This document shows positions 13,835 to 35,277 of a DNA stretch of 38,209 nt, in pieces. Both the position numbers and the translations under genes were made by a program. The notes below the pieces were generated by a model. It ran no database searches, was not told the DNA's origin, and worked only from the letters and a program-made list of their open reading frames with translations. This stretch comes from a bacterium (GTDB lineage: Bacteria > Zhuqueibacterota > QNDG01 > DTFT01), in NCBI GenBank assembly GCA_030372965.1, contig JAUCQC010000144.1:1-38209 (forward strand). The letters run 5' to 3'. Every line of letters begins with the position of its first letter. The stretch's first letter is position 1.

Positions 13835-14836
13835 TTAGAAGGACGCGCGCGCCGTGATGCGCTGCACCGAGTCGAACACGCCGAAAGGCGTGTAGGCGTA
13901 ATCGAAGCCCACGCCCTTGTATCCCGCTCCGATTCCGAACGAGAAGGAATCCTCGTCCTCCTCGGTGACGTATCCGCCGCGCAGGGAAACCAGCTTGAAC
14001 AGCGTGTAGTCCAGGCCCACCATGACCTGCTCGGGCCGCGAGCGGTAGTGCGCGACATCCACGACCGCGATCAGGGAATGATCGATTCCCCCGGTCCCGA
14101 TCCAGTCCAGCAGGTCGGCGGAGACGCCCATCGTGAAAGTCAGCGGCAGCTGAAAACCTTCGCGTTCGAACTTGTATTCCTTCGAAAAATTGCGGATCGA
14201 CATGCCGAAGGCCAGGCTCTTGAAACCGGTCTTGAAATTGGTCCCGAAGTCGAAGGACAGCGGCGTGACCTCGTTTGCCTCCTTTTTCAGCGAATCGACG
14301 CCCGCCGGCAGCCAGCTCTCGCCCAGCTGCTGCTTCACCCAGTGCGCCTGGGCGCCGACCGCGAACCGGTCGGTGAGGGAACGGGCGTAGCCGAGCCCGA
14401 CCGAGAGGGCCGAGGGCGAAAACTTGCCCAGGTCGGCGTATCCCCGGTCCTGCGACAGGTCCACCATGGTCCACTGCAGGTCGCCGTAGTCCACGTTCTG
14501 AAGAGAGGCGCCGAAAACGCCGTACTTGCCCTTGAAGGGCCTGAAGGCGACGCTCATCTCGGTGTGCCGGATGTCGGCGAGCCACTCGTTCAGGCTGATC
14601 GAGAAATCGGCGGTGCCGGTCATGCCGGCGATGCCCGCGGGGTTGAAGAACAGGCTGCCGGACCCCATCTCGAGCGTGGTGACGGCCCCGGCCATGGCCA
14701 TGGCCCTGGCGTCGGCCTTGACGTTCAGAAACTCCATGCCGCTCTGGGCCAGTTTTTTATAATTCTGGGCCGATCCGTCGGAGGCCAGGCCGAGCAGGAT
14801 CAATCCGATCCCCAGAATGGTGAGATGCCTTTTCAT
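13835..14836 (-). CDS. PorV/PorQ family outer-membrane protein
   Basis: A 333-residue protein with a signal peptide (about 1-23, DGSAQN) and the family's N-terminal signature (GMEFLNVKADARAMAMAGA, then GSGSLFFNPAGIA). The rest is a FadL-like barrel of alternating strands ending RITARASF, with a terminal Phe. PorV in Bacteroidetes receives cargo at the T9SS translocon; PorQ and related proteins are less defined. Members in other FCB phyla are often encoded next to TonB receptors, as here. Start ATG 14836 with GAGGAAAA upstream. It follows the 701-residue cargo-like gene by 33 bases. This could be a transporter or cargo-handling partner dedicated to this locus rather than the general T9SS PorV; the sequence cannot decide. 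Confidence 0.85.
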   Translation of the reverse strand: MKRHLTILGIGLILLGLASDGSAQNYKKLAQSGMEFLNVKADARAMAMAGAVTTLEMGSGSLFFNPAGIAGMTGTADFSISLNEWLADIRHTEMSVAFRPFKGKYGVFGASLQNVDYGDLQWTMVDLSQDRGYADLGKFSPSALSVGLGYARSLTDRFAVGAQAHWVKQQLGESWLPAGVDSLKKEANEVTPLSFDFGTNFKTGFKSLAFGMSIRNFSKEYKFEREGFQLPLTFTMGVSADLLDWIGTGGIDHSLIAVVDVAHYRSRPEQVMVGLDYTLFKLVSLRGGYVTEEDEDSFSFGIGAGYKGVGFDYAYTPFGVFDSVQRITARASF

Positions 14837-14869: not shown

Positions 14870-16975
14870 TTATCGGATGATCACGAACTTCCGGAACGTC
14901 TTTTCTCCGTCGGGCGTCTCGAACACCGCGATGTAGAGCCCGCTCACCACGACCTGACGCGATGAGGTCACCGATTCCCAGAGTTCGTCCCCCGAGTTGT
15001 TGGTGTGGTTCAGGGTCTTGATCAAATCCCCGCGCTCGGTGTAGATCTTGATGGTGCACTGGGGCGGAAGGCCGAAAAACGCGATCCGGTCCGGCTGGTC
15101 GAACTGGATGCTCCGGCCGCCGAGGTGGAAGGGGTTCGGAACGACGCGGATGGAATCCATCGTGGTCAGGACCGAAGGCCGCCGGAGGTACGCGGGCTGG
15201 TTCGTGACCGTGTAGTATTTGCTGCTGACCAGCGGCGTGCCGGGTTTGATGTCGTTCTGGGACCCGTCATCCTTGCTCACGATGTAGTAGTAGTAGTTGA
15301 AACCCCGCTTGGCCGTGATGTCGTCGAAACGGTTGACGACGTTGTTCTTGTCGCACGAGAACAGCAGGTCGTACAGGGTGTCGGGCCTGGCCGAAGCACG
15401 GTAGATTTCGTACCCGTTGAAATAGGGCCACGATTCCGCGTTGTTGGCCCATTCGAGCACGATGCGGTCTCCGCCCGAGCTGACGGTGAACGTTTCGGGC
15501 GGGGGCGGCGGCTGGGGGATCACCAGATTGTTGTTGTACGCCCGGATCGCGCGCCGCAGCGTCTCCTTGATCGAATCCTCGGCCGTCCAGACCCATGCGC
15601 GCTTGTAGGCGTGCCGGTCGCTGCTGGTCGAGCCGTCAGGCATCGTGAAGGGCGCGGCGTTGTTGAACCAGTTCGTCCCGACTTCCAGGCTCTTGCGCCG
15701 GGTCAGGCCGTTGACGCCTTCGGCCATGACGATATGAACGCTCTGGCCGGGCTCCAGGGTGTAGGGCCCGTAGGACAGGATCTGCGCGGACCCGCCGATG
15801 CCCGGGCCGAACAGGTCGGCGAAATTGCCGTCGCCCACCGCCTCGGCATGGGTCTGATCGGGATGGCCGGCGCTCATGGCCGCGTACTGCAGGGTCATCT
15901 GGTTGATATTGTACGAGTCGATCCAGTTCATGATGTTGTCGTCCGTGTCCCACCACGGCGTGGACTTCGGCTGTTCGAGATCGTCGGACTTGTCGGTGGC
16001 CGACTTGTCCGCGTGCAGGGTCGCGACACCGCAGAAGCCGGGCGCGCCGAGCACACCGGGCCCGCCGTAATTGGGTTCGCCCCAGTCGGCTTCATAGCCC
16101 ATCGACGCCTGCGAGTGCGGACCGTACCAGGCGTACGAGGCGCGCATTTCGAACAGCGGGTCGGTCGGATCTTGGCCGATGGTGTGGAGCACCGTGTTCC
16201 GGCCCCAGCTCACGTTCCCGGTGGAATGCCAGCCGCCGATGTAGCCCTGGTGGCCGGGCGCGTACCGGTTCGTGAAGGCGAAGTAAACGCCGTTCAGAGT
16301 CTGGTTGACCGGCGCGCCGCTTCCGTCCTTCAGGCCGACGTTGGTGAAGACGAAATCGTAAATGTGGTAGTCGTCATGGTTCTGCTGGCTGTAGGCGTAG
16401 ATGGTGCGCTCGCACCGGACCCCGATGTTGGTCTCGGTGACGTTGACCAGAACGCGGTCCGCCGGCAGGTCGGGATCGATCTCGTCGACGATGTCGTCGA
16501 GCGTGTTGTCCGTGCCGTCCGCGCCGTCGACTGTCACGATGGGATGGTTGAATCTGCCGTACAGCTTGAACTCGCCCGGCACGAAATTGGTCAGCGTGTT
16601 GAGGTAGCGCGGCCCGGCCTGGCATACCTTGAACGGATAGGTGAGCCCGGTTTTCGGGTCGGCGAAGTCCGTGGCGCCGATCCAGAGCGAGCGGGAGCAC
16701 TGCGTGTCGGTGCGGTAGTACAGCGCCTCCCACATCATCTCGTCGGCCTGCTGGGTGTTCTGCGCGGCCGCGCGGGAGATCAGCCCGTATTCGATCTCCA
16801 TGCCGGCGTTGGTGTACCACTGGCGCAGGTCGCCGACCCGGATCCACTTGACCTCATGGGGACCGGTGTATTCCTGTGCGGGCAGGGCCGCGGGAAGAAG
16901 CGCCGCGGCGAGCGCGCACAGAGCCGCCGCCCGGGCGAACGCCCCGCCGAAACCGGTGTTATTCAATTTCTTCAT
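14870..16975 (-). CDS. secreted protein with fibronectin-like and T9SS-type C-terminal domains
   Basis: A 701-residue exported protein: signal peptide (1-34, ALPAQEY). A large N-terminal region (about 40-480) has no family I can name; it is rich in Trp, Tyr and Asn (WGEPNYGGPGVLGAPGF, YLNTLTNFVPGEFKLYGRF). Residues about 493-590 form a fibronectin-III-like domain (RIVLEWANNAESWPYFNGYEIYRAS). The last 90 residues are a diverged FlgD-like sorting module (IRVVPNPFHLGG ... TIKIYTERGDLIKTL ... GLYIAVFETPDGE), lacking the full NYPNPFN motif. It lies between the TonB receptor (31 bases upstream) and the PorV/PorQ gene, so it is likely the surface or released partner of the receptor. Enzyme activity is not evident. 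Confidence 0.82.
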   Translation of the reverse strand: MKKLNNTGFGGAFARAAALCALAAALLPAALPAQEYTGPHEVKWIRVGDLRQWYTNAGMEIEYGLISRAAAQNTQQADEMMWEALYYRTDTQCSRSLWIGATDFADPKTGLTYPFKVCQAGPRYLNTLTNFVPGEFKLYGRFNHPIVTVDGADGTDNTLDDIVDEIDPDLPADRVLVNVTETNIGVRCERTIYAYSQQNHDDYHIYDFVFTNVGLKDGSGAPVNQTLNGVYFAFTNRYAPGHQGYIGGWHSTGNVSWGRNTVLHTIGQDPTDPLFEMRASYAWYGPHSQASMGYEADWGEPNYGGPGVLGAPGFCGVATLHADKSATDKSDDLEQPKSTPWWDTDDNIMNWIDSYNINQMTLQYAAMSAGHPDQTHAEAVGDGNFADLFGPGIGGSAQILSYGPYTLEPGQSVHIVMAEGVNGLTRRKSLEVGTNWFNNAAPFTMPDGSTSSDRHAYKRAWVWTAEDSIKETLRRAIRAYNNNLVIPQPPPPPETFTVSSGGDRIVLEWANNAESWPYFNGYEIYRASARPDTLYDLLFSCDKNNVVNRFDDITAKRGFNYYYYIVSKDDGSQNDIKPGTPLVSSKYYTVTNQPAYLRRPSVLTTMDSIRVVPNPFHLGGRSIQFDQPDRIAFFGLPPQCTIKIYTERGDLIKTLNHTNNSGDELWESVTSSRQVVVSGLYIAVFETPDGEKTFRKFVIIR

Positions 16976-20301: not shown

Positions 20302-21312
20302 TCAGGCCGACTTGCGGATGATCAGCTCGGTTTTTAATATTTTATGGACCGGATGCGCGTCGCCGGACCGGTTCGAGATCCGTTCGATCAGGAGTTCGGC
20401 CGCGGTCCTGCCGATCTCGTACGCCGGCTGACGGACCGTGGTGAGCGGCGGCTCGATGAGATCGGCCATGGGGTTGTCGGTGAATCCCATGACGGCCATC
20501 CGGTCCGGCACGGCGATGCCTTCCTGCTTCAGGCGGACCAGCGCGCCCATGGCCACCGGATCGGTCACGCAGAAAACCGCGTCGGGCCTTTCTCCGCCCT
20601 GCTTGAGCAGTCTGGACATGGAATCCACGCCGTCCTCCTCGTTCAGGCCGCCGCGGATGACCCATTCGTCGCGAAGGGGACAACCGAGCCGGCTGACCGC
20701 GTCCCGGAATCCCTCGAACCGGAGGCGGCAGATGCTCAAAAATTCGGGTCCGCCCAGGTGGCCGAACCGGCGGTAACCCTTCCGCACCAGGTACTCGCCC
20801 GCGCGAAAGGCCCCGTCGTAGTCATCGACCACCACGGTGGGCGCGTCCACCTCGCCGCAGACGCGGTCGAAAAAAACGAGCGGCACGCCCCGCTGTTTGA
20901 GGCGGTTGAAATGCTCGCACGATTTCGTCGTCACGGACACGGATATCAGGAGTCCCGCCACACGGTGGGACAGCAGGACGTCGATGTTGCTCTTTTCCCT
21001 CTCGAAATCCTCGTTGGACTGGCAGATCATGACCGTGAATCCGGCCTGATAGGCCACGTCGGTGACACCGGACATGATGGACGCGAAGAAATAATGCTTG
21101 ACCTGGGGGACCACGACGCCGATGACCTGGGATTGTTTCTGCTGGAGGCTTTTCGCGAGGGTGTTGGGATGGTAGTCGAGTTCACGGGCCAGGGCCTCGA
21201 TCCGCTTGCGCGTCTCCTCGCTGATATCCGGGTGGCCGGACAGGGCGCGGGATACGGTCGAGACGGATACGCCCATTTTACGGGCTATGTCCTTGATCGT
21301 GGTTTGTTTCAT
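20302..21312 (-). CDS. LacI family transcriptional regulator
   Basis: A 336-residue repressor-type protein. N-terminal helix-turn-helix (residues 4-25: TTIKDIARKMGVSVSTVSRA), hinge helix YHPNTLAKSLQQKQS (about 47-61), then a periplasmic-binding-protein-like effector domain (VIGVVVPQVKHYFFASIMSG ... FFDRVCGEVDAPTVVVDDYDGA ... MAVMGFTDNPMADLIEPPLTTV). Length and motifs are normal. It is the first gene of the unit with the TonB receptor, secreted protein, PorV-like protein and lipoprotein. A perfect palindrome of LacI type lies on its own promoter, so autoregulation together with the downstream genes is likely. The effector is probably a sugar or sugar phosphate, but that is family knowledge only. 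The Shine-Dalgarno is weak. Confidence 0.94.
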   Translation of the reverse strand: MKQTTIKDIARKMGVSVSTVSRALSGHPDISEETRKRIEALARELDYHPNTLAKSLQQKQSQVIGVVVPQVKHYFFASIMSGVTDVAYQAGFTVMICQSNEDFEREKSNIDVLLSHRVAGLLISVSVTTKSCEHFNRLKQRGVPLVFFDRVCGEVDAPTVVVDDYDGAFRAGEYLVRKGYRRFGHLGGPEFLSICRLRFEGFRDAVSRLGCPLRDEWVIRGGLNEEDGVDSMSRLLKQGGERPDAVFCVTDPVAMGALVRLKQEGIAVPDRMAVMGFTDNPMADLIEPPLTTVRQPAYEIGRTAAELLIERISNRSGDAHPVHKILKTELIIRKSA

Positions 21313-21456
21313 TTCTGATTGGGATGCCGGGAGAGGGTTCGGTTCCGGCCGCGTGCCGTAGGCCCGGGTGCGTTTCAGGCGGAACGGTTCGATTGCGGAC
21401 CTGCGCCGACTCTGCGGAACCGTTCACGCCCGATGAAATGGGCCCACTTTGGTTCC

Positions 21457-21468
21457 GCAAACGTTTGC
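21457..21468. promoter_or_regulatory. LacI-family operator
   Basis: GCAAACGTTTGC, a perfect 12-bp palindrome with the central CG that LacI-family hinge helices insert into. It starts one base after the -10 box of the lacI promoter, so it covers the transcription start; a bound repressor would block initiation. Confidence 0.8.
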
Positions 21469-21497
21469 AAGTTACGAAACTAATTTTTCTTTGTCAA
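21469..21497 (-). promoter_or_regulatory. promoter of the lacI-TonB receptor unit
   Basis: On the minus strand TTGACA (21497-21492), 17 bases, TAACTT (21474-21469). The transcription start would be near 21462, inside the operator, with a leader of about 150 bases to the lacI ATG. Confidence 0.7.
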
Positions 21498-21638
21498 CGG
21501 ATTTTTCGTAAAAATATTCCAGGTACTGAATACTGTTACTTTACATAGAAAAACCGTTAAGAACGTCAATACAGTTAAAAGTGACGGAGAAATCTGAGAT
21601 CCCCGAAGAAACCCGACTTTGAGGATCTGTCTTTCCGC

Positions 21639-21667
21639 TTGACATTTAAATATCTCAACATTATATT
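21639..21667 (+). promoter_or_regulatory. sigma-70 promoter of the tandem lipoprotein genes
   Basis: TTGACA (21639-21644), 17 bases, TATATT (21662-21667), in the AT-rich part of the 602-base gap between the divergent lacI and lipoprotein genes. Predicted transcription start near 21674. Confidence 0.75.
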
Positions 21668-21673
21668 TAAATA

Positions 21674-21914
21674 TATAACTTGAGGAACCACGCATACCCC
21701 TTGCTCTCCTTTTTGTTCAACACCTTCATTTAAGTCATTCGTAACTGTATACGAGACCGCCTGTCTTTAATATATCGCGGGAGACAGGATAGTCCGTCCT
21801 CACCTATAATTATTAGGAGGACCCGAACCGCATTTCGGCTAACGGATGTCCGGCCCTGCCGGTCCTTCATCCCCAATCATCCGTATCTCGCCTGAAAGGC
21901 GAAAGGAGGGTCCC
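21674..21914 (+). other. long 5' leader of the tandem lipoprotein genes
   Basis: About 240 bases separate the predicted transcription start from the ATG at 21915. They contain a 7-bp hairpin CCTGTCT/AGACAGG (21760-21766, 21782-21788), an unused ribosome-site-like AGGAGG near 21823, and a small GCCT-gaaa-GGC hairpin just before the real ribosome site AAAGGAGG. No known riboswitch is recognised; a further promoter nearer the gene is the alternative. Confidence 0.4.
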
Positions 21915-22733
21915 ATGAACCGTCTCATTCCTGCGGCTCTTTGCCTGGCCGCGGCCGCTCTGCTCCTCGACTGCTCCCGTGATGAACCCACCGGTATCGT
22001 CTACGCGCCGGACACGGCCGGCCCAAAACGCCTGATCCGTGCCGGACAAATCCGCTTTTCCTACGACGACCAGGGACGTCTGTCCGGGGTGGATTCGATT
22101 CGCACGATCAGCCTGTCCCGATCGTATGAGTTCGTATACGATAGTGACCGCCTCATCCGTGAGAACATCCGTTACCGGTATGACGGCACCGGAGGATGGG
22201 AAAACCGCTCGCGTGTATACGAATACGACGGCAACGGTCGTTTGAAGATCATCCGGGACCTGTATGAACGGTATCCGGACGGGGAGCTTGTTTCAAGGGG
22301 TGGATGGAATATCAAATGCGACACCCGCGGAAGGGTGACGGCGTACCAACGTTTTTATACCACCGGCAATCCGCTCCCGGAGGATGAATTCGTCTACTAT
22401 CTGAACGGCAACTTGTACGAGTGGAGAACCGGCTTCACACAGGAAGGGGATTCGGTCATTCCGCTGTACGATCGGACGTACGAATACGACCGGGGGAAAA
22501 ACCCGTTCCCGGCGCGAATCGGTGATCGGGAGATTTTCCCGCGCACGGACGAGAACAACCCGGTGAAAATCACCGAGATTTCACGCGAGGGAGGCCGGAT
22601 CCGTGTCACGGTCCTGGAGTACGAATACACCTACGATGACTCGGGATACCCGATCCATTCCCTGTGGTATGTCAACGGCAGCCTGGCCGGAGAAACGGAT
22701 TACGAGTATGAGCCGGTTCCGGCTGCCGACTGA
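21915..22733 (+). CDS. YD-repeat-like exported (lipo)protein, paralogue 1
   Basis: A 272-residue exported protein. The N-terminal signal (MNRLIPAALCLAAAALLLDC) ends in Cys20, but the residue before it is Asp instead of the Gly/Ala/Ser of a normal lipobox, so lipidation is uncertain. The mature part is built of short YD/RHS-like beta-hairpin repeats (IRFSYDDQGRL, YEFVYDSDRLI, RVYEYDGNGRL, YTYDDSGYP, TDYEYEP). It ends in GETDYEYEPVPAAD, nearly the same as the next gene's end. The start at 21915 follows AAAGGAGG; an in-frame ATG 23 codons earlier would bury the signal. The next gene, 84 bases downstream, is a diverged copy. Function unknown; such repeats often bind carbohydrate or stay as shell-like surface strands. 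Confidence 0.8.
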   Translation: MNRLIPAALCLAAAALLLDCSRDEPTGIVYAPDTAGPKRLIRAGQIRFSYDDQGRLSGVDSIRTISLSRSYEFVYDSDRLIRENIRYRYDGTGGWENRSRVYEYDGNGRLKIIRDLYERYPDGELVSRGGWNIKCDTRGRVTAYQRFYTTGNPLPEDEFVYYLNGNLYEWRTGFTQEGDSVIPLYDRTYEYDRGKNPFPARIGDREIFPRTDENNPVKITEISREGGRIRVTVLEYEYTYDDSGYPIHSLWYVNGSLAGETDYEYEPVPAAD

Positions 22734-22817
22734 GTCCGCCGCGAGACTCTCCGGATCTCCGGCATTTGCGGAACCGGACGCTCACACGGATGCTGTGAAC
22801 TCCTCCAGGAGGGACAA

Positions 22818-23609
22818 ATGAATCGAAAAATCGCGCTCTTCGCGACGATCGCCGCCGCGATCGTCATTTCAGGCTGCGGCCGGGACAGATCGACAAACCC
22901 ATCCGGCCGTTCGATCGGGAAACGCCTCATTCGCGCCGGTCATGTCTCCATCGCCTACGATTCCGAAGGCCGGGTTCAATCCCTGATCGAGATGCCGGCC
23001 TACACCTATGAAATGATGTCAAGCGAGTTTCATTATCAGGATGGCCTGTTGGCCGATCAGGAGATACTGATGGCCTACGGGGAAGGCGAGTCCTCCCTGC
23101 ACCGGTACGTCTATGAATACGACACCAGGGGGTTTTTGAGCCGGGTCACGCAGCTCAACATCTATGATGACCGGATCGAGCCCAGCTTCAAGTGGGCCGT
23201 CCGGTGCGACAGCCTGGGACGGCCGGTGGTGTTCGACTGGCTGTGGGCCGACGGATCCACGTCGCCCCGGATGGAGTTCGTCTTCGATTCGGACGGAAAT
23301 ATCCGCACCGAAAAGACGGATTTTTCGGGAGGCGTCGCGCAAACCGTCACCTCGTATGAGTATGACCGTTTCCTGAACCCTTTCACGGAGGTGAAAGGGG
23401 TCATGCATTTCTTTCACGGCTTCAACAGGAACAATCCGCTGACGAGCGTCACGGAGTCGACCGTCATGGGGTTACCGCGCCGGACGGAAACGCGCCATGA
23501 GTATGTTTACGACGACGCGGGGTATCCCGTCTATGCGCGGACCTATCTGAACGGCGAACTCAACGGGGAAACGAAATACGAATACGAACCGGTTCCGGAA
23601 GCGGATTAA
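22818..23609 (+). CDS. YD-repeat-like lipoprotein, paralogue 2
   Basis: A 263-residue lipoprotein with a standard lipobox (VISGC, Cys20). Order of segments parallels paralogue 1: KRLIRAGHVSIAYDSEGRV (against KRLIRAGQIRFSYDDQGRL), YVYEYDTRGFLSRV, MEFVFDSDGNIRTEK, TSYEYDRFLNPF, EYVYDDAGYPVYARTYLNG and the end GETKYEYEPVPEAD. These YD-like hairpin repeats resemble RHS-type modules but lack the RHS core and toxin tip. The ribosome site CCAGGAGGGA precedes the ATG. It shares a transcript with paralogue 1 and is followed by a 10-bp hairpin. Clearly a tandem duplication that has diverged; role unknown. Confidence 0.85.
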   Translation: MNRKIALFATIAAAIVISGCGRDRSTNPSGRSIGKRLIRAGHVSIAYDSEGRVQSLIEMPAYTYEMMSSEFHYQDGLLADQEILMAYGEGESSLHRYVYEYDTRGFLSRVTQLNIYDDRIEPSFKWAVRCDSLGRPVVFDWLWADGSTSPRMEFVFDSDGNIRTEKTDFSGGVAQTVTSYEYDRFLNPFTEVKGVMHFFHGFNRNNPLTSVTESTVMGLPRRTETRHEYVYDDAGYPVYARTYLNGELNGETKYEYEPVPEAD

Positions 23610-23621
23610 ATTCGGACAGCC

Positions 23622-23662
23622 GGACCTCCCGGGGGCCGAAGACACCAACCCTCGGGAGGTCC
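23622..23662 (+). terminator. hairpin after the tandem lipoprotein genes
   Basis: GGACCTCCCG (23622-23631) pairs perfectly with CGGGAGGTCC (23653-23662) over a 21-base loop, 13 bases after the stop codon. The tail is only weakly T-rich, so termination is likely but not certain. Confidence 0.55.
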
Positions 23663-23714
23663 TCTCCGTCCTGTAAAATAGTATCACCCATTCTGCCCGC
23701 ATCCACACAAGTCC

Positions 23715-23743
23715 TTGACTTTTTCCCTTTAATTGGTTAAATA
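23715..23743 (+). promoter_or_regulatory. promoter of the Gfo/Idh/MocA oxidoreductase gene
   Basis: TTGACT (23715-23720), 17 bases, TAAATA (23738-23743). The start would be near 23750, giving a 140-base leader that holds the two dyads at 23802-23856. Confidence 0.65.
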
Positions 23744-23801
23744 AAAACAGTGCTTTTCCAGTCCATACTGCATTTAATCCTTTCTTGTTATATAGAGGGA
23801 A

Positions 23802-23856
23802 GGTCCCGAGGGACCAGGCCGGCAAATCTTTCAACCAAGGAAGGTCCTAAAGGACC
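23802..23856 (+). promoter_or_regulatory. two 14-bp dyads in the oxidoreductase leader
   Basis: GGTCCCGAGGGACC (23802-23815) and GGTCCTAAAGGACC (23843-23856), starts 41 bp apart, each preceded by GGAA. A third GGAAGG follows at the ribosome site (AAGGAAGGCCCCT before the ATG at 23892). They could be RNA hairpins in the leader or tandem protein-binding sites. Confidence 0.6.
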
Positions 23857-23891
23857 AATCTATTATATTTTTTTAAATAAGGAAGGCCCCT

Positions 23892-25283
23892 ATGGAAAAA
23901 AAGGATTCGGAGAAACGGATCACCCGCAGGGATTTCATCGGCGGCATGACCGCCGCCGCCGCGGCGTTCACCATCCTCCCCTCCGGGCTTCGGGCTGGTG
24001 AAAATTCCAGGCCGTCCGGAACGCTCAGCCCCAACGACCGGCTGAACATCGCGGTCGTGGGCGTGGGCGGCATGGGCCGATCCAACCTGAAGGCCGTGGC
24101 GGACACGGAGAACATCACGGCCCTGTGCGATGTGGACGAGAACCTCGCCTCGGAGGTGTTCGCTCAATTTCCCAAGGCCGCCCGGTTCTGGGACTTCCGC
24201 GACATGATGGACAAGGCGCATCGGGACATCGACGCGGTCATCGTCGCGACGCCCGATCACACCCACGCGGTCGTCGCCATGGCCGCCATGCAGATGAACA
24301 AACACGTGTATGTCCAAAAGCCCCTCACCCGGCTCGTGTCCGAGGCGAGAAAGCTCACCGAAGCGGCCCGCCGGTACGGCGTGAAGGCCCAGATGGGGAA
24401 CCAGCACCACTCCGAGGAGCCCATCCGGCTGATCGCCGAGATGATGGCCGACGGCGCCATCGGCCCGGTGCGCGAAGTGCACCTGTGGACGAACCGGCCG
24501 GTGTGGCTGCAGGGCGTGGCCGAGAGGCCCGCGGCCGTGCCCCGGCCGGACGGACTGGACTGGGACCTCTGGTGCGGGCCATCCCCCCTGCGCGGGTACA
24601 ATCCCGTCTACCACCCCTTCGCCTGGCGCGGCTGGTGGGATTTCGGGACCGGCGCGCTCGGGGACATGGGCTGTCACTTCATCGACCCGACCTATTTCGC
24701 GCTCAAGCTGACCAAGCCCACGGCCATGGAAGCCAGCATCGCGGCCCTTGTCGACCCGAAGGAAATATGGGAGAAGGTCGACAACCGCGAAACCTTCCCC
24801 TCCGGGTCCATCGTCACGTTCGAATTCCCGGCCCGGGAGTCCATGCCCCCGGTGCGGCTGTTCTGGTACGACGGCGGGCTCAAGCCCCCGAGACCCGAGG
24901 AGCTGGAGCCGGGCCGCAATCTTCCGGTCAACGGATCCCTGTACATCGGGGACAGAGGGAAAATACTCCACGACCTGGACGGCGCCGCGCCCCGCATCAT
25001 CCCGGAGGAGAAAATGCGCGCCTACACCATGCCGGCCAAGACCATCCCCCGCATCTTCACGAGCCACGAGATGAACTGGGTCAATGCCTGCAAGGGCGTC
25101 GGCGACCTGAGCTCGCCGTTCGACTACGCGGGGCCGCTGGCCGAGTCCACGCTCGCGGGCAACCTGGCCGTGCGCTTCCCCTGGCAGAGGCTCGAGTGGG
25201 ACGCCGAGGCCATGCGGGTGACGAACTTCGACGACGCGAACGAATACGTGGAGCCGCATTACCGGCAGGGGTACTCGATTTAA
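23892..25283 (+). CDS. Tat-exported Gfo/Idh/MocA family oxidoreductase
   Basis: A 463-residue NAD(P)-dependent oxidoreductase. The N-terminus carries a twin-arginine signal (RITRRDFIGG, Arg12-Arg13, then a hydrophobic stretch to about 36), so the folded, cofactor-loaded enzyme is exported to the periplasm. The Rossmann domain has NIAVVGVGGMGRSN (GVGGMG 57-62), CDVDE, the signature ATPDHTHA (119-126) and VQKPLTR (Lys143; the usual EKP is QKP, common in this exported subfamily). The second domain has the tight WDLWCGPSP and HPFAWRGWWDFGTGALGDMG stretches typical of Tat-signal relatives. The family oxidises or reduces sugars and derivatives; the substrate is unknown. Ribosome site AAGGAAGG. Followed by a palindromic repeat and a strong terminator. 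Confidence 0.93.
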   Translation: MEKKDSEKRITRRDFIGGMTAAAAAFTILPSGLRAGENSRPSGTLSPNDRLNIAVVGVGGMGRSNLKAVADTENITALCDVDENLASEVFAQFPKAARFWDFRDMMDKAHRDIDAVIVATPDHTHAVVAMAAMQMNKHVYVQKPLTRLVSEARKLTEAARRYGVKAQMGNQHHSEEPIRLIAEMMADGAIGPVREVHLWTNRPVWLQGVAERPAAVPRPDGLDWDLWCGPSPLRGYNPVYHPFAWRGWWDFGTGALGDMGCHFIDPTYFALKLTKPTAMEASIAALVDPKEIWEKVDNRETFPSGSIVTFEFPARESMPPVRLFWYDGGLKPPRPEELEPGRNLPVNGSLYIGDRGKILHDLDGAAPRIIPEEKMRAYTMPAKTIPRIFTSHEMNWVNACKGVGDLSSPFDYAGPLAESTLAGNLAVRFPWQRLEWDAEAMRVTNFDDANEYVEPHYRQGYSI

Positions 25284-27700: not shown

Positions 27701-30700
27701 ATGACAGCTCGAAGAAAATCCTTTCCCTCCTTCCTCTTCGGCCTCCTCTGCTGGACCCTTGCGAGCCTCTACGCTCAAACCGAAACCATCCGGTTCGAAA
27801 AACTCTCCATTGAACACGGCCTCTCGCAGAGTTCCGTCACGTCGATCTGCCAGGACCGCAGGGGATTCCTCTGGTTCGGTACGTATGAGGGTATCAACCG
27901 GTACGACGGATACGAATTCAGGATTTTCCGCCATAACCCGGACGACCCGCACAGCCTCATCCAGAATGTCATCAAGGACATCCGGGAGGACCGGTCCGGC
28001 ACGCTCTGGATCGCCACCGACGGCGGTTTGGACAGGTACGACCGCCAGGCCGACCGTTTCATCCACTACGTCCACGACCCGGCCGATTCCACGAGCCTCA
28101 GCCACAACCGGGTGCGGTGCGTCTACGAAGATGCCGAAGGCAGTCTCTGGGCCGCCACGGACAACGGCCTGAACCGGTATGACCGCAAGTCGGACCGGTT
28201 CGTCCGGTATCGGCACAACCCGTCCGATCCCGCCAGCCTCTGCGACAACAAGGTCCGCGAAATCTATGAGGACCGTCAGGGAAATCTCTGGATCGGCACG
28301 GACGCGGGTCTCGAATGTCTCGACCGCAAAACGGGCCGCTTCCGTCATTACCGGAACGTGCCGGGCGATCCGAACAGCATCAGCGGGAACCACGTGATTT
28401 CCTTCGGTGAGGACAGAAGCGGATATCTGTGGATCGGCACATGGGACAAAGGGCTGAACCGTTTCGACCGCCGGACGGGAAAATTCAAGCGGTACATGGC
28501 CGATCCACGGAATCCGAAGAGCCTGCAGTACAACACGGTGAGGGCCATTTACGAGGACCGAGGCGGCACTCTGTGGATCGGCACCTACGGAGGGGGCCTC
28601 GAAAGGTATGACCGGGAAACCGACGGATTCACGCATTTCCGCTCGAATCCGGACGATCCGATCAGCCTCAGCAGCGACGCCGTCTGGTGCATCGCCGAAG
28701 ACGCGTCCGGGATTCTCTGGATCGGAACCGATTTCGGGGGCATTTCCAAGTACGACCGCAGAAAGAACCAGTTCGAATTTCACCGGAGCGGTTCCGGCGC
28801 GGCGGGCGGCCGGTACCGCAACGCGGTGAACGCGCTGTACGCCGATCCGGACGACCGCGGCCGCATCCTCTGGATCGGCACCTGGGGAGGCGGGCTCTGC
28901 CGCCTGGACCGCCGCACCGGAGAGCAGGTCTGCTTCAAGAACGACCCCTACGATCCCGGGAGCATCAGCAACGATGTGATCCGCTGCATCGAGAAGGACC
29001 GTGACGGCCGGCTTTGGATCGGGACCGACGTCGGGCTGAACCGTCTGGACCGCGGAACCGGACGGTTCGAGCGGTTCTACTGCGAACCGGGAAATCCCGC
29101 CACACTGGATTACGACAACATCTTCAGCCTCTGCGAGGACAGCAGGGGCAATCTGTGGGTCGGATCGTATTACGGGGGACTGAACCGCTTCGATCGGAAA
29201 ACACGGCGCTTCATCCGGTACCGGACGGATCCCGCGGACCCGGACGCATTCAACGACAACATCGTCTGGTGCATCAGGGAAGACAGGGCGGGCCGGATCT
29301 GGATCGGAACCGACGCCGGAGGGCTGAACCGGTTCGACCCCGCGACCGGGCGGTTCGCCCATTACCTGAGAATTCCGGGAAATCCAAACAGCATCAGCGA
29401 CAACAAAGTCCTCAGCATCCACGAGGACGCCGCCGGAATCCTCTGGCTGGGAACGCCGGGCGGCCTGAACCGGTTCGACCCCGCGGCCGGACGCTGGCGA
29501 CGGTACGGACGGCAGGACGGCCTTGCCTCGGACGCCGTGCAGTCCATCGCGGGGGACCCGGAAGGCTATCTCTGGATCGGCACCACCAAGGGACTGTCGC
29601 GCTTCGATCCGCGCAAGGACACATTCGTCAATTTCAGCTCAAACGACGGGCTCCAGGGAGACGAGTTCAACGTCAATGCCTGCGCGTCGGCCGTCACGGG
29701 GGAGATGTTCTTCGGCGGGATCAACGGCTTCAACGTGTTCTTCCCGAACCGGGTGAAACTCAACGGATTCATCCCGCCGGTCGTGCTGACCGACTTCCAG
29801 CTGTTCAACCGGTCCGTTCCGGTCGGTGAGCCGGTCGGCGGCCGGGTGATCCTGAAGCAGTCCATCACGGAAACCCCGGAGATCTCACTGTCGCACCGGC
29901 AGAACGATTTTTCCATTTACTACGCCGCCCTGTCCTTCTCCGCGCCGGACCGCAACGCCTACCGGTTCCGGCTGACGGGCATCGAGAAGGAGTGGAGCCC
30001 GGCCGGCCCGAGGCGCTTCGCCACGTACACGCGGCTGCCGCCGGGCAATTATGTCTTCGAGGTGAAGGGCTCCAACAACGACGGCGTCTGGAACGAGAAG
30101 GCCGTCTCCCTGAAAATCCGGATCCGGCCGCCGTTCTGGAAGACGGCCTGGTTCATCGTTCTGGCGTCGATGGCCGGCCTCGGCCTGGTGGCCGCGGGTT
30201 ACGTCAACCGCACCGGAAAGATCAAGGCGAGGAACCGGGAACTGGAATCGCGTGTCCGGGAAAGAACACGCCAGCTGGAGGAGGCCAACCGCGAACTCGA
30301 GGCCTTCACCTATTCGGTCTCGCACGACCTCAGGTCGCCCCTACGCGCCATGGACGGGTTCAGCCAGGCTGTTCTCGATGAATACGGGCCGAAACTCGAC
30401 GACCGGGGCGCGGATTATCTCCGGCGCATCCGGAGGGGAAGCCAGCAGCTGGGACGGCTGATCGATGACCTGCTGAAGCTGTCCCGGCTTGCCCGAAGCG
30501 AGATGAATTTCAAGGACATCGACATCGGCCGTCTGGCGGAGACGATCGCGGAGGAACTGCGGCGGTCGGAACCGTCCCGAAAAGCCGAATTCGTCATCGC
30601 CCGGGACGCGATCGTGCACGGGGACCCGAATCTGCTGAAAGTGATGCTCACCAACCTGCTCGGCAACGCCTGGAAATTCACGTCGAAACGTCCCGAAACC

Positions 30701-30994
30701 CGCATCGAGTTCGGCGTTCGGCACGGAGAAGGCGGCCGCGTGTTTTTCGTGCGGGACAACGGCATCGGCATGGACATGAAATACGCGGACAAGCTGTTCA
30801 AGCCGTTCCAGCGCCTGCAGTCGGAGTTCGAGGGAAGCGGCATCGGCCTGTCCACGGTCGCCCGGATCATCCGCCGGCACAACGGCCGCATCTGGGTCGA
30901 GGGGAAACCCGATGCGGGCGCCGTCTTCTATTTCACGCTGGACAATCCGGAACACGCCGGTGACGGGAACCCGGCCGGATCGCGTCCGGTTTGA
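27701..30994 (+). CDS. two-component sensor histidine kinase with 14-blade Reg_prop sensor
   Basis: A 1097-residue inner-membrane kinase. Signal peptide (1-25); 14 Reg_prop repeats (about 27-680, pattern EDRxGxLWIGTxxGGLNRYD), i.e. two seven-blade periplasmic propellers; a Y_Y_Y Ig-like domain (about 735-808: YRFRLTGIEKEWSPAGPRRF); one membrane helix (about 812-836); a coiled linker; HisKA with the phosphate acceptor His875 (YSVSHDLRSPLRAMDGF); HATPase with NAWKF, DNGIGMDMKY and GSGIGLSTV. There is no receiver or AraC domain, unlike Bacteroides hybrid sensors, so a separate response regulator must exist; none is adjacent. The kinase core resembles that of phytochrome-like kinases. Such sensors typically detect sugars or oligosaccharides. 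The ribosome site is weak. Confidence 0.94.
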   Translation: MTARRKSFPSFLFGLLCWTLASLYAQTETIRFEKLSIEHGLSQSSVTSICQDRRGFLWFGTYEGINRYDGYEFRIFRHNPDDPHSLIQNVIKDIREDRSGTLWIATDGGLDRYDRQADRFIHYVHDPADSTSLSHNRVRCVYEDAEGSLWAATDNGLNRYDRKSDRFVRYRHNPSDPASLCDNKVREIYEDRQGNLWIGTDAGLECLDRKTGRFRHYRNVPGDPNSISGNHVISFGEDRSGYLWIGTWDKGLNRFDRRTGKFKRYMADPRNPKSLQYNTVRAIYEDRGGTLWIGTYGGGLERYDRETDGFTHFRSNPDDPISLSSDAVWCIAEDASGILWIGTDFGGISKYDRRKNQFEFHRSGSGAAGGRYRNAVNALYADPDDRGRILWIGTWGGGLCRLDRRTGEQVCFKNDPYDPGSISNDVIRCIEKDRDGRLWIGTDVGLNRLDRGTGRFERFYCEPGNPATLDYDNIFSLCEDSRGNLWVGSYYGGLNRFDRKTRRFIRYRTDPADPDAFNDNIVWCIREDRAGRIWIGTDAGGLNRFDPATGRFAHYLRIPGNPNSISDNKVLSIHEDAAGILWLGTPGGLNRFDPAAGRWRRYGRQDGLASDAVQSIAGDPEGYLWIGTTKGLSRFDPRKDTFVNFSSNDGLQGDEFNVNACASAVTGEMFFGGINGFNVFFPNRVKLNGFIPPVVLTDFQLFNRSVPVGEPVGGRVILKQSITETPEISLSHRQNDFSIYYAALSFSAPDRNAYRFRLTGIEKEWSPAGPRRFATYTRLPPGNYVFEVKGSNNDGVWNEKAVSLKIRIRPPFWKTAWFIVLASMAGLGLVAAGYVNRTGKIKARNRELESRVRERTRQLEEANRELEAFTYSVSHDLRSPLRAMDGFSQAVLDEYGPKLDDRGADYLRRIRRGSQQLGRLIDDLLKLSRLARSEMNFKDIDIGRLAETIAEELRRSEPSRKAEFVIARDAIVHGDPNLLKVMLTNLLGNAWKFTSKRPETRIEFGVRHGEGGRVFFVRDNGIGMDMKYADKLFKPFQRLQSEFEGSGIGLSTVARIIRRHNGRIWVEGKPDAGAVFYFTLDNPEHAGDGNPAGSRPV

Positions 30995-33453: not shown

Positions 33454-34680
33454 TCACTGCGTCAGGGTTTCGATTCTCCCCATGAACAGCATCGTCCCGG
33501 ACGTCTTGTCGTAGATCGCGAAGGCGAAGGGCCGGTCGAAGCGAATCGTGCCTTCGTCCGGTTCCACGGAAGTCTCCCGGATCTCCACGACCGTCACGGC
33601 CGCGGCTTCCGTTCCCTTCTCGTCCACTTCGACGAACGATTTGTGATAAACATCGCTGATATAGGGACCGACGCTTCCGGTGATCCGGCTGAAATCGGCC
33701 CTGCCGTCGAAAGCGGCGGCCATTCCCAGGGCCTTCAGCGCGTCGCTCAGCGTGATTTTGTACTCGACCTTGAACTTCGGGAGATACAGGTTCATTTCCC
33801 GTTTGACGAAGTTCCCTCTCCATCCCCGCCACGCGGTTTCCGTCCATCCCCGGATGAAATCGTCCGTGGAGCGCCCCTCCTCCGGAAGGAACAGGGCCAT
33901 GGCGAAGCGGCCGTTGCCGTACGGCAGTTCCACGGCGCGGAAATCCGATGTCCGGAAATATCCGATCTCCGACTTCTGCGACATCATCCTGCAGGGCAGG
34001 GCGGACCCGCCGGCGGGATAAAAATATTCGTCCCGCGTGGTCTTCGGATCGAAGGCGGTCACCCAGGTTCCCTTGAAATAAACCGCATTGATCAGAAACA
34101 TCACCGTCATCGGATCGATGTCACCGATCATCTCGTCGATGCGGCCGTGCGTCTTGTCCGAAATCCAGCCGTTGATGACATCCGGCGCGGCCGGGTCGGA
34201 GAAGTCCAGCTCCCGGACCGCCGCGTCGAAGCACTGCCGGTTCACATCGACGAAGGCGGGCAGAACCGGATAGCCCATCCGGTACCAGATGGAATTCGCG
34301 ATTTCCATGACCGTTTCAGGATCCGCCGCCGGCAGAAGGTCGAGGAGGCCCCGATAGGAGGCGTTGACCTCGTCCTGGGACATGCCCTCGAACCCGAGGA
34401 CCGAGCGCATGTCCGCCTCGGTCCCGCCGGCTGCGCCGTTCAGAGTCATGCCCAGGGCCATCGAAACCGAGAAGGGCGAGACGAAGACGTTCTTCACGCC
34501 CTCCTCCCTGCACACTTCGGCGAACAGATTGAAGCCGAAAGCGTTGGAGGCCTCGGACACGCGTTTTTCCAGGGCGGTCAATTCCCGGGCCGGCTGCGGA
34601 TCGGCGTTCCCGATCGTGGACAGGTCCCGGTCGCAGGACAAGACCATGAGAGCGGACGCGAATAACAGGGTTTTTCTCAT
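33454..34680 (-). CDS. lipoprotein serpin (serine/cysteine protease inhibitor)
   Basis: A 408-residue serpin on a lipid anchor: signal peptide with lipobox (LMVLSC, Cys15), then the full serpin fold (NLFAEVCREEGVKNVFVSPF, ALGMTLNGAAGGTEADM, NGWISDKTHGRIDEMI, FLINAVYFKGTWVTAFD, LPKFKVEYKITLSDALKALG, FDRPFAFAIYDKTSGTMLFMG). The hinge EKGTEAAAVT (354-363) has the small residues required for loop insertion, so it is probably inhibitory. By alignment to alpha-1-antitrypsin the scissile bond would be near Thr370-Ser371, but the loop is about three residues longer and the P1 residue is uncertain. The start at 34680 follows GGAGG; an ATG five codons earlier lacks support. Last gene of the sigma-54 activator operon. 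It is predicted to sit in the periplasm or on the cell surface. Confidence 0.95.
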   Translation of the reverse strand: MRKTLLFASALMVLSCDRDLSTIGNADPQPARELTALEKRVSEASNAFGFNLFAEVCREEGVKNVFVSPFSVSMALGMTLNGAAGGTEADMRSVLGFEGMSQDEVNASYRGLLDLLPAADPETVMEIANSIWYRMGYPVLPAFVDVNRQCFDAAVRELDFSDPAAPDVINGWISDKTHGRIDEMIGDIDPMTVMFLINAVYFKGTWVTAFDPKTTRDEYFYPAGGSALPCRMMSQKSEIGYFRTSDFRAVELPYGNGRFAMALFLPEEGRSTDDFIRGWTETAWRGWRGNFVKREMNLYLPKFKVEYKITLSDALKALGMAAAFDGRADFSRITGSVGPYISDVYHKSFVEVDEKGTEAAAVTVVEIRETSVEPDEGTIRFDRPFAFAIYDKTSGTMLFMGRIETLTQ

Positions 34681-34713
34681 CTGAAATTCCTCCATGGATT
34701 GGAAAAGGGGCGG

Positions 34714-35277
34714 TCATGAAATCCATATCATCACGGACCGGCTCACGCCCCATTCCCCGTCTTTTTTCTTCAGATGGATCAAAGATCCGTAAGCGGCCAG
34801 AGGAGCCCAGTACACGGACCCGTAAACCAGCGCCTCGGTCCCGTCCCGGTTGAAACCCGCGAGCGACACCGTGACCGCGCCGCAGGACCCGGGCACGGTC
34901 CGCTCCCAATCCCAGGACGACCGCGCGTCCAGAAACACGATGCTCCTTCCCGGACACCGGAAACCCCTGATCGAAACCCGGTTCCGGTTCCGTCTCTGAA
35001 AGCTGTTCCAAGTATCAACCGACAGGCCCGTCAGGCGCTCCCGGATCAATTCGCCGTAGGCTTCGGTCCTGCCGCCCGGTCCGATCGCCGTGCTGTCCAC
35101 CATCGCCACGACCGGGCAGGGCATGAATGTCGTGTCTCCGAGAAGCGCCCGGTACACCGCGAAATCGGACTCCAGTCCGGCGCCCCTGGACGGTGAAAGA
35201 ATCGATCCATCACGCTCACACCCGGCGATTCCGAGGAGAACGGAGAGGACCGCAAGTGCCACGACCGTTCGTCTCAT
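34714..35277 (-). CDS. hypothetical lipoprotein
   Basis: A 187-residue lipoprotein with a clean lipobox (LLGIAGC, Cys20). The mature part has no recognised family. Seen in it: a YRALLGDTTFMPCPVVAMVD stretch, a WNSFQRRNR segment, CPGRSIVFLDARSSWDWE, and a C-terminal beta-rich end (LIHLKKKDGEWGVSRSVMIW), which resembles small domains ending with a 'kkkdGeWkv' hairpin as in NTF2-like or uncharacterised lipoproteins. Two further cysteines could form a disulphide. ATG 35277 has AGGAGG upstream. 33 bases before the serpin gene and 22 after the barrel gene, so one operon. Confidence 0.78.
   Translation of the reverse strand: MRRTVVALAVLSVLLGIAGCERDGSILSPSRGAGLESDFAVYRALLGDTTFMPCPVVAMVDSTAIGPGGRTEAYGELIRERLTGLSVDTWNSFQRRNRNRVSIRGFRCPGRSIVFLDARSSWDWERTVPGSCGAVTVSLAGFNRDGTEALVYGSVYWAPLAAYGSLIHLKKKDGEWGVSRSVMIWIS

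What the first reader, a model, noticed from the sequence alone, without database searches (positions are those of the whole stretch)
21639..23662. Tandem diverged YD-repeat lipoproteins under one strong promoter with a long leader
Two neighbouring proteins share start and end blocks (KRLIRAG..., ...GETxYEYEPVP(A/E)AD) but differ strongly in between, which points to duplication followed by fast divergence of exposed loops. Paralogue 1 has an unusual lipobox with Asp before Cys. They resemble RHS-type repeat strands without toxin or core. The 240-base leader may hold regulation.
Basis: partly seen in the sequence, partly recalled or inferred. Interest (0 to 1): 0.55.

Follow-up and report, generated by a model that had tools for sequence, protein, structure and literature searches.

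The report
Accessory pair of YD-repeat lipoproteins
Two side-by-side, distantly related genes for exported, probably membrane-anchored proteins sit in a small self-contained block that a close relative lacks; they look like a known but poorly understood type of beta-sheet protein, perhaps serving as a shield against toxins from neighbouring bacteria.

Summary
P1 (21915-22733, 272 aa) and P2 (22818-23609, 263 aa) are full-length paralogues, 35% identical, with conserved start and end blocks. A sigma-70-like promoter, a leader of about 240 nt and a hairpin after P2 complete one transcription unit. New fact: a same-genus genome (about 90% DNA identity in the flanks) has the same LacI and Gfo/Idh neighbours but 315 bp in place of the 2,140-bp block 21564-23703, so the whole unit is accessory. 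No relative reached E <= 0.001 in 387 other genomes. Both structure models (low confidence) are sheets of 14-15 strands; by alignment Z-score their best matches are Bacteroides 'porin-like' proteins (4ghb, 3tzg), with Rhs shells next; Foldseek's E-value puts an Rhs protein first for P1. P1's Asp at -1 is real. 'Fast divergence of exposed loops' is not supported: synonymous sites are saturated and strands are no more conserved than the rest. Best guess: an accessory envelope recognition protein pair, possibly orphan immunity proteins comparable to Bti1 of Bacteroides fragilis, whose near-identical homologue is reported as a DUF4595 lipoprotein. No toxin link was shown, and T6SS genes were not searched.

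The parts
21564..23703 (.). accessory block of 2,140 bp, replaced by 315 bp in the same-genus genome G001
   Evidence: blastn of L103 against the window: L103 1-1137 = 20425-21563 (90.6%), L103 1453-1508 = 23704-23759 (89.3%), L103 1555-2991 = 23841-25277 (90.4%)
21639..21667 (+). sigma-70-like promoter TTGACA-17-TATATT, inside the block
   Evidence: 5 of 1000 shuffles reach 11 of 12
21674..21914 (+). leader, about 240 nt (start of transcription inferred)
   Evidence: fold of 21674-21940: z -1.88, 6 of 200 shuffles fold as well; no Rfam family at threshold
21915..22733 (+). P1: YD-repeat lipoprotein-like protein, 272 aa, with Asp at -1 of the lipobox Cys
   Evidence: model with 14 strands, mean pLDDT 60.8
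22818..23609 (+). P2: paralogue, 263 aa, ordinary lipobox (ISGC)
   Evidence: model with 15 strands, mean pLDDT 63.6
23622..23662 (+). hairpin with 14-nt arms after P2, terminator-like but without a strong T run
   Evidence: inverted repeat I5; fold of 23610-23685: -35.5 kcal/mol, z -4.0, 0 of 200 shuffles. The terminator scan did not list it

Best explanation
P1 and P2 are a two-gene accessory operon with its own promoter and terminal hairpin, between a conserved LacI-type regulator gene and a conserved Gfo/Idh gene. Each protein is exported. P2 is very probably anchored to a membrane by a lipidated Cys; P1 is perhaps poorly processed because of Asp at -1. Each folds into a large antiparallel beta-sheet of Rhs/YD hairpins, in the manner of the Bacteroides 'porin-like' (DUF4595-type) and DUF3836 proteins. 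I infer that the variable middle carries a binding face for a specific partner and that the two copies bind different variants. The partner I think most likely is an incoming envelope-acting toxin, so that the pair would be an orphan immunity cassette comparable to Bti1 of Bacteroides fragilis. Shown: gene layout, paralogy, accessory status, YD pattern. Modelled only: the fold. Inferred: one transcript, surface, binding, immunity.
For: Block absent from G001 between the same neighbours. No match in 387 other genomes at E <= 0.001, which fits patchy accessory genes. P1 and P2 have the lowest third-position G+C of 19 ORFs measured in the window (0.692 and 0.746; the others 0.750-0.901). Best structure matches by VIA-align Z are Bacteroides 'porin-like' proteins: P1 to 4ghb Z 10.7 (183 aligned, 4.0 A) and 3tzg Z 9.4 (185, 4.7 A); P2 to 3tzg Z 11.0 (190, 5.0 A) and 4ghb Z 10.8 (193, 4.7 A). 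Precedents in print: BF9343_1936 (Bti1), named an immune protein on the authority of Chatzidaki-Livanis 2016 (not read), has a domain 'similar' to the DUF4595 domain of its homologue in strain BOB25 (one substitution apart), which is called a lipoprotein (PMC11854122, section 6 and passages); an orphan Bti1 is listed (PMC7604300, one table passage); tandem TipC immunity proteins with lipoprotein signals have conserved start and end regions and a variable centre, the layout seen here (PMC9484751, section 18 read).
Against: Pfam's DUF4595 model matches neither protein and nothing in this genome at E <= 0.01. No toxin was recognised among 19 neighbouring ORFs scanned at E <= 1e-5, but 6 of the 19 have no Pfam match and other ORFs of the window were not scanned; no PADLOC model matches P1 or P2. 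T6SS genes were not searched. The models rest on one two-sequence alignment, with low confidence; TM-scores to 4ghb and 3tzg are at most 0.45, and Foldseek's E-value ranks RhsA first for P1. LolA-type proteins also score well for P1 (9tp6 Z 8.1), and against viral models P2 resembles MORN-repeat proteins (25 of the 50 rows listed), so part of the match may be a generic hairpin sheet. Gain versus loss of the block is not settled, and G001's contig is only 3,075 bp. Neither conservation nor hydropathy alternates along the P1 strands (1608 and 926 of 5000 permutations reach the observed values). The published orphan immunity proteins studied in PMC12247911 have SUKH domains, not this fold (passages). 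A shared fold shows no function.
Confidence: 0.33

Rival explanations
1. Accessory envelope lipoproteins of unknown ligand, for example for cell-surface structure or adhesion, with the same fold but no role in immunity.
For: Fold and export signals as above; YD-repeat proteins with lipoprotein-like signals also occur in the Oscillospiraceae locus L003 and in the partial frame L070 from the same phylum, no toxin link known to me.
Against: Does not by itself explain a tandem divergent pair in an accessory block.
Confidence: 0.3
2. Surface sugar-binding lipoproteins that belong to a carbohydrate-uptake locus run by the neighbouring LacI regulator, with the TonB-dependent receptor and Gfo/Idh.
For: Neighbours are a LacI regulator, a TonB-dependent receptor and Gfo/Idh; a LacI-type palindrome GCAAACGTTTGC lies at 21457-21468.
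Against: G001 keeps LacI, the palindrome and Gfo/Idh but not P1/P2; P1/P2 have their own promoter-like site about 170 bp beyond the palindrome.
Confidence: 0.18
3. Leftover fragments of a large Rhs/teneurin-type shell protein.
For: Rhs-type shells are among the best structure matches (Z 8.6 for P1, 8.7 for P2; RhsA first by Foldseek E-value for P1); weak RHS_repeat hits.
Against: Both are complete ORFs with their own signal peptides and conserved ends; no RHS_repeat match at E <= 0.01 in this genome, which is 85% complete.
Confidence: 0.07

Closest known systems
Bacteroides 'porin-like' proteins 4ghb (BACUNI_01323) and 3tzg (BVU_2266), DUF4595-type
   Same: predicted fold over nearly the whole mature protein, similar length; Z 9.4-11.0
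   Different: sequence identity 9-14%; Pfam DUF4595 does not match P1 or P2. That these two entries belong to Pfam DUF4595 and are lipoproteins is recalled, not tested
DUF3836 (PDB 4r03, 4r8o)
   Same: YD-hairpin sheet; Z 7.1 and 6.7 for P1, 9.9 and 9.6 for P2; P1 19.0 bits
   Different: below the Pfam cut-off of 25 bits; solved chains of about 100 residues
Rhs/YD-repeat shells (RhsA, Tse5, Tc BC components, teneurins)
   Same: YD turn pattern and hairpin sheet
   Different: no closed shell, no Rhs core, no toxin; 263-272 aa lipoprotein-like proteins
Bti1 (BF9343_1936), immunity protein of the B. fragilis GA3 T6SS
   Same: reported to carry a domain similar to DUF4595, homologue called a lipoprotein; an orphan copy is listed (PMC11854122 and PMC7604300, passages)
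   Different: sequence and structure not compared here; no effector recognised next to P1/P2
TipC immunity proteins of streptococci
   Same: tandem genes, lipoprotein signal, conserved start and end, variable centre (PMC9484751, section 18)
   Different: different toxin system and host; homology not tested

Membership tests
Bacterial lipoprotein (P2) | positive n-region, hydrophobic core, lipobox with G/A/S before Cys | tested here: met
   MNRKIALFATIAAAIVISGC, read by eye; the lipobox rule is recalled
Bacterial lipoprotein (P1) | small residue at -1 | tested here: not met
   LLLDC, Asp at -1; the only such case among 24 candidates. Whether it is still lipidated is not testable here
DUF4595 (PF15283) | match to the Pfam profile | tested here: not met
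   no hit for P1 or P2 with max E 10 (HMMER filters drop most weak hits); no hit in this genome at E <= 0.01
DUF4595-type fold (4ghb, 3tzg) | same fold over the domain | tested here: inconclusive
   highest Z for both models (9.4-11.0), but pLDDT 60.8 and 63.6 and TM at most 0.45
DUF3836 (PF12930) | profile score above 25 bits | tested here: not met
   P1 19.0 bits, P2 no hit
YD repeat (TIGR01643) | profile score above 15.8 bits | tested here: inconclusive
   P1 19.9 bits, above; P2 13.7 bits, below
Rhs toxin | Rhs shell/core with C-terminal toxin | tested here: not met
   proteins of only 272 and 263 aa; RHS_repeat below cut-off
T6SS effector-immunity pair | cognate effector next to the immunity gene | tested here: inconclusive
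   no toxin recognised among 19 neighbouring ORFs, 6 of them without any Pfam match at E <= 1e-5
Orphan immunity gene | protects against a toxin made by others | not testable with these tools
   needs a protection assay; patchy presence is seen

The most novel reading that the evidence does not exclude
A minimal, self-contained orphan-immunity cassette (own promoter, leader, two diverged YD-hairpin lipoproteins, terminal hairpin) that is gained or lost as a unit in a lineage outside Bacteroidota (inferred: only 82 genomes of its phylum are held), showing that the Rhs/YD hairpin sheet is used both in toxin shells and as the shield against toxins.
Probability: 0.2. Interest if true: 0.6.

Novelty: new member of a known kind. 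Interest (0 to 1): 0.36.

Why it matters
It gives a clean two-gene accessory unit, with the site without it in a sister genome, in which a fold of largely unknown function can be tested. If the proteins are immunity factors, they would link YD-hairpin lipoproteins more widely to defence against neighbours. If not, they are an ordinary variable pair of envelope lipoproteins.

Tried and rejected
Lineage-specific lipoprotein sorting signal: P1, P2 and two other lipoproteins of the window share C-x-R-D after the Cys, but none of the 19 candidates in 351,071 bases of further stretches has it (4 of 24 in all), so a genome-wide signal was rejected.

LacI control of the pair: the palindrome at 21457-21468 is kept in G001, which lacks P1/P2, so it more likely belongs to the LacI/Gfo module (sequence printed).

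dN/dS: saturated. Two-faced sheet: no alternation seen (its first run failed with a division by zero). One search counted motifs on gapped alignment rows and was replaced.

Relatives. A1 profile: the own genome is the only match at E <= 0.001 among 82 phylum genomes and among 388 wider genomes (these sets overlap); P2 alone against 59 genomes likewise. At E <= 5, 45 of 387 others had weak matches; 29 of those places were given loci and re-scored, and 15 frames with E below 0.5 were read. They include YD-repeat proteins (L052, L053, L056 Rhs-like, L070, L076) and unrelated proteins; none has both end blocks, but L054, a 94-aa frame of another kind, resembles the end block over 22 residues. Genome contigs: 99 stretches matched a peptide pattern, one encodes a weak relative (Oscillospiraceae, 23%, E 1e-5 relative to the candidates only), which the A1 profile does not match at E <= 0.001. 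Viral contigs: 76 stretches matched a pattern, none a relative. Plasmids: P2 none at E <= 0.01; P1 best 3e-2. The motif YEYDxxxNPF in viral contigs: 103 stretches, 80 held and read; 74 of the 80 are one capsid-like phage protein (identity recalled), 6 are short other frames, none matches the A1 profile at E <= 10. PHROGs: P2 17.4 bits to phrog_34665, E 0.008, unknown function. PDB by sequence: nothing below E 0.1. Foldseek against viral models (P2): 25 of 50 listed rows are named MORN-repeat; the first is a phage protein annotated with a lipoprotein attachment site (E 4.8e-9, TM 0.26 at most). G001's 315 bp against the block: best local score 16, reached by 4 of 200 shuffles, so a deletion scar is possible but weak; no direct repeat of 8 bases or more between 21501-21640 and 23601-23760.

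Literature: 8 searches. DUF4595 occurs in 3 papers of the library; the search for DUF3836 and the PDB/locus names listed 9 papers, none on these proteins by title.

Full report
What is there. Two + strand genes, P1 (21915-22733) and P2 (22818-23609), lie 84 bases apart. They align from end to end at 35% identity, E 1e-43. The block KRLIRAG is identical (7 of 7) and the last 20 columns are 15 of 20 identical, while columns 45-235 are 53 of 191. Both are rich in Tyr-Asp turns: the pattern h.[YF]D..G occurs four times in each mature protein and was reached by 0 of 5000 shuffles. A search of the genome (85% complete) with P1 at E <= 1 finds these two copies only.

Transcription unit. A promoter-like site with 11 of 12 consensus bases starts at 21639; only 5 of 1000 dinucleotide shuffles of the intergenic region reach that on the + strand, although the generic scan as a whole is not above chance (3 found, 1.8 expected). 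The leader of about 240 nt folds slightly better than shuffles (z -1.88, 6 of 200) and no Rfam family reaches its threshold. A hairpin with 14-nt arms follows P2 (z -4.0, 0 of 200), without a strong T run. That all this is one transcript is inferred.

Accessory block. The Gfo/Idh gene just downstream has a 94%-identical match in the same-genus genome G001. Its contig (L103, 3,075 bp) aligns to window 20425-21563 at 90.6% and to 23704-23759 and 23841-25277 at about 90%, but has 315 bp where the window has 21564-23703. Promoter, leader, both genes and the hairpin all fall inside this 2,140-bp block. Direction (gain here or loss there) is open: no target-site repeat was found, and a weak similarity of G001's 315 bp to the P1-P2 junction is reached by 4 of 200 shuffles. 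Rarity (0 of 387 other genomes at E <= 0.001) and the two lowest third-position G+C values among 19 ORFs measured (0.692 and 0.746 against 0.750-0.901) favour gain, weakly.

Fold. AlphaFold2 models on the two-sequence alignment are of low confidence (mean pLDDT 60.8 and 63.6; the best P1 model stood far above the other four, 60.8 against 43.9 and lower; two P2 models agreed in confidence, 63.6 and 63.3) with 14 and 15 strands. By VIA-align Z the best solved matches are the Bacteroides 'porin-like' proteins 4ghb and 3tzg (P1: 10.7 and 9.4; P2: 10.8 and 11.0). For P1 there follow Rhs-type shells (8.6, 8.3), a LolA-type protein (8.1) and, lower, DUF3836 proteins (7.1, 6.7); for P2 the DUF3836 proteins (9.9, 9.6), 3msw (9.1) and RhsA (8.7). 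Foldseek ranks RhsA first for P1 (E 4.6e-6; 4ghb 2.1e-5) and 3tzg first for P2 (E 1.2e-6); TM-scores to 4ghb and 3tzg are at most 0.45. The two models used the same pair of sequences and are not independent. Sequence profiles support the YD class only weakly.

Export. P2 has a normal lipobox. P1 has Asp at -1, the only case among 24 crude lipoprotein candidates in 389 kb of this genome. Lipoprotein signal peptidase is generally held to need a small residue there (recalled), so P1 may stay unprocessed or be processed slowly.

Function. Three things point to a variable binding protein rather than a core enzyme: patchy presence, tandem divergent copies with conserved ends, and the modelled fold. 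In print, Bti1 (BF9343_1936) of B. fragilis is called a T6SS immune protein, with a domain similar to the DUF4595 domain of its near-identical homologue, itself called a lipoprotein (PMC11854122, section 6 read and passages; the original 2016 experiments were not read). An orphan Bti1 is listed (PMC7604300, one passage). Its effector Bte1 acts on a periplasmic chaperone complex (PMC12718326, passages). Divergent orphan immunity genes protect gut bacteria, though those studied have SUKH domains (PMC12247911, passages including parts of the abstract). Tandem TipC proteins show conserved ends and a variable centre (PMC9484751, section 18). These are parallels, not membership: Pfam DUF4595 does not match, no toxin was recognised among 19 scanned neighbours, 6 of them unassigned, no PADLOC model matches, and T6SS genes were not searched. 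I therefore put the immunity reading at about one in three, with unspecified envelope recognition close behind, a sugar-uptake role lower because G001 keeps the LacI/Gfo module without the pair, and an Rhs remnant lowest.

Verdict. The kind of protein is known; the sequences are a new, isolated branch at the sensitivity reached here. Claims of loop-specific fast evolution and of leader regulation are not supported by what could be tested.

Noticed in passing
21457-21468: LacI-type palindrome GCAAACGTTTGC upstream of the LacI gene, kept in G001; one other near-match in the genome (C102:11609-11622).
   Followed up: partly
33454-34695 and 34714-35277 (- strand): A serpin with a lipoprotein-type signal and a neighbouring unassigned lipoprotein share C-x-R-D after the Cys with P1 and P2; 4 of 24 candidate lipoproteins, all four in this window.
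   Followed up: partly
23798-23857: Two copies, 41 bases apart, of GGAAGGTCCnnnnGGACCA, each able to form a short hairpin, in front of the Gfo/Idh gene; a looser third copy at 23881.
   Followed up: no
27701-30994: Sensor protein with two-component regulator propellers, Y_Y_Y, HisKA and HATPase domains.
   Followed up: no
13835-14836 and 14870-16975 (- strand): Two exported-looking proteins next to a TonB-dependent receptor with no Pfam match at E <= 1e-5.
   Followed up: no
L003 3564-7098: Oscillospiraceae contig with two YD-repeat proteins with lipoprotein-like signals (526 and 365 aa) on either side of a 263-aa protein that shares the N-terminal part of the first.
   Followed up: no
L054 (G205:C17:8018-8083): A 94-aa frame of another kind of protein resembles the P1/P2 end block over 22 residues (E 0.002 for one genome).
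   Followed up: no
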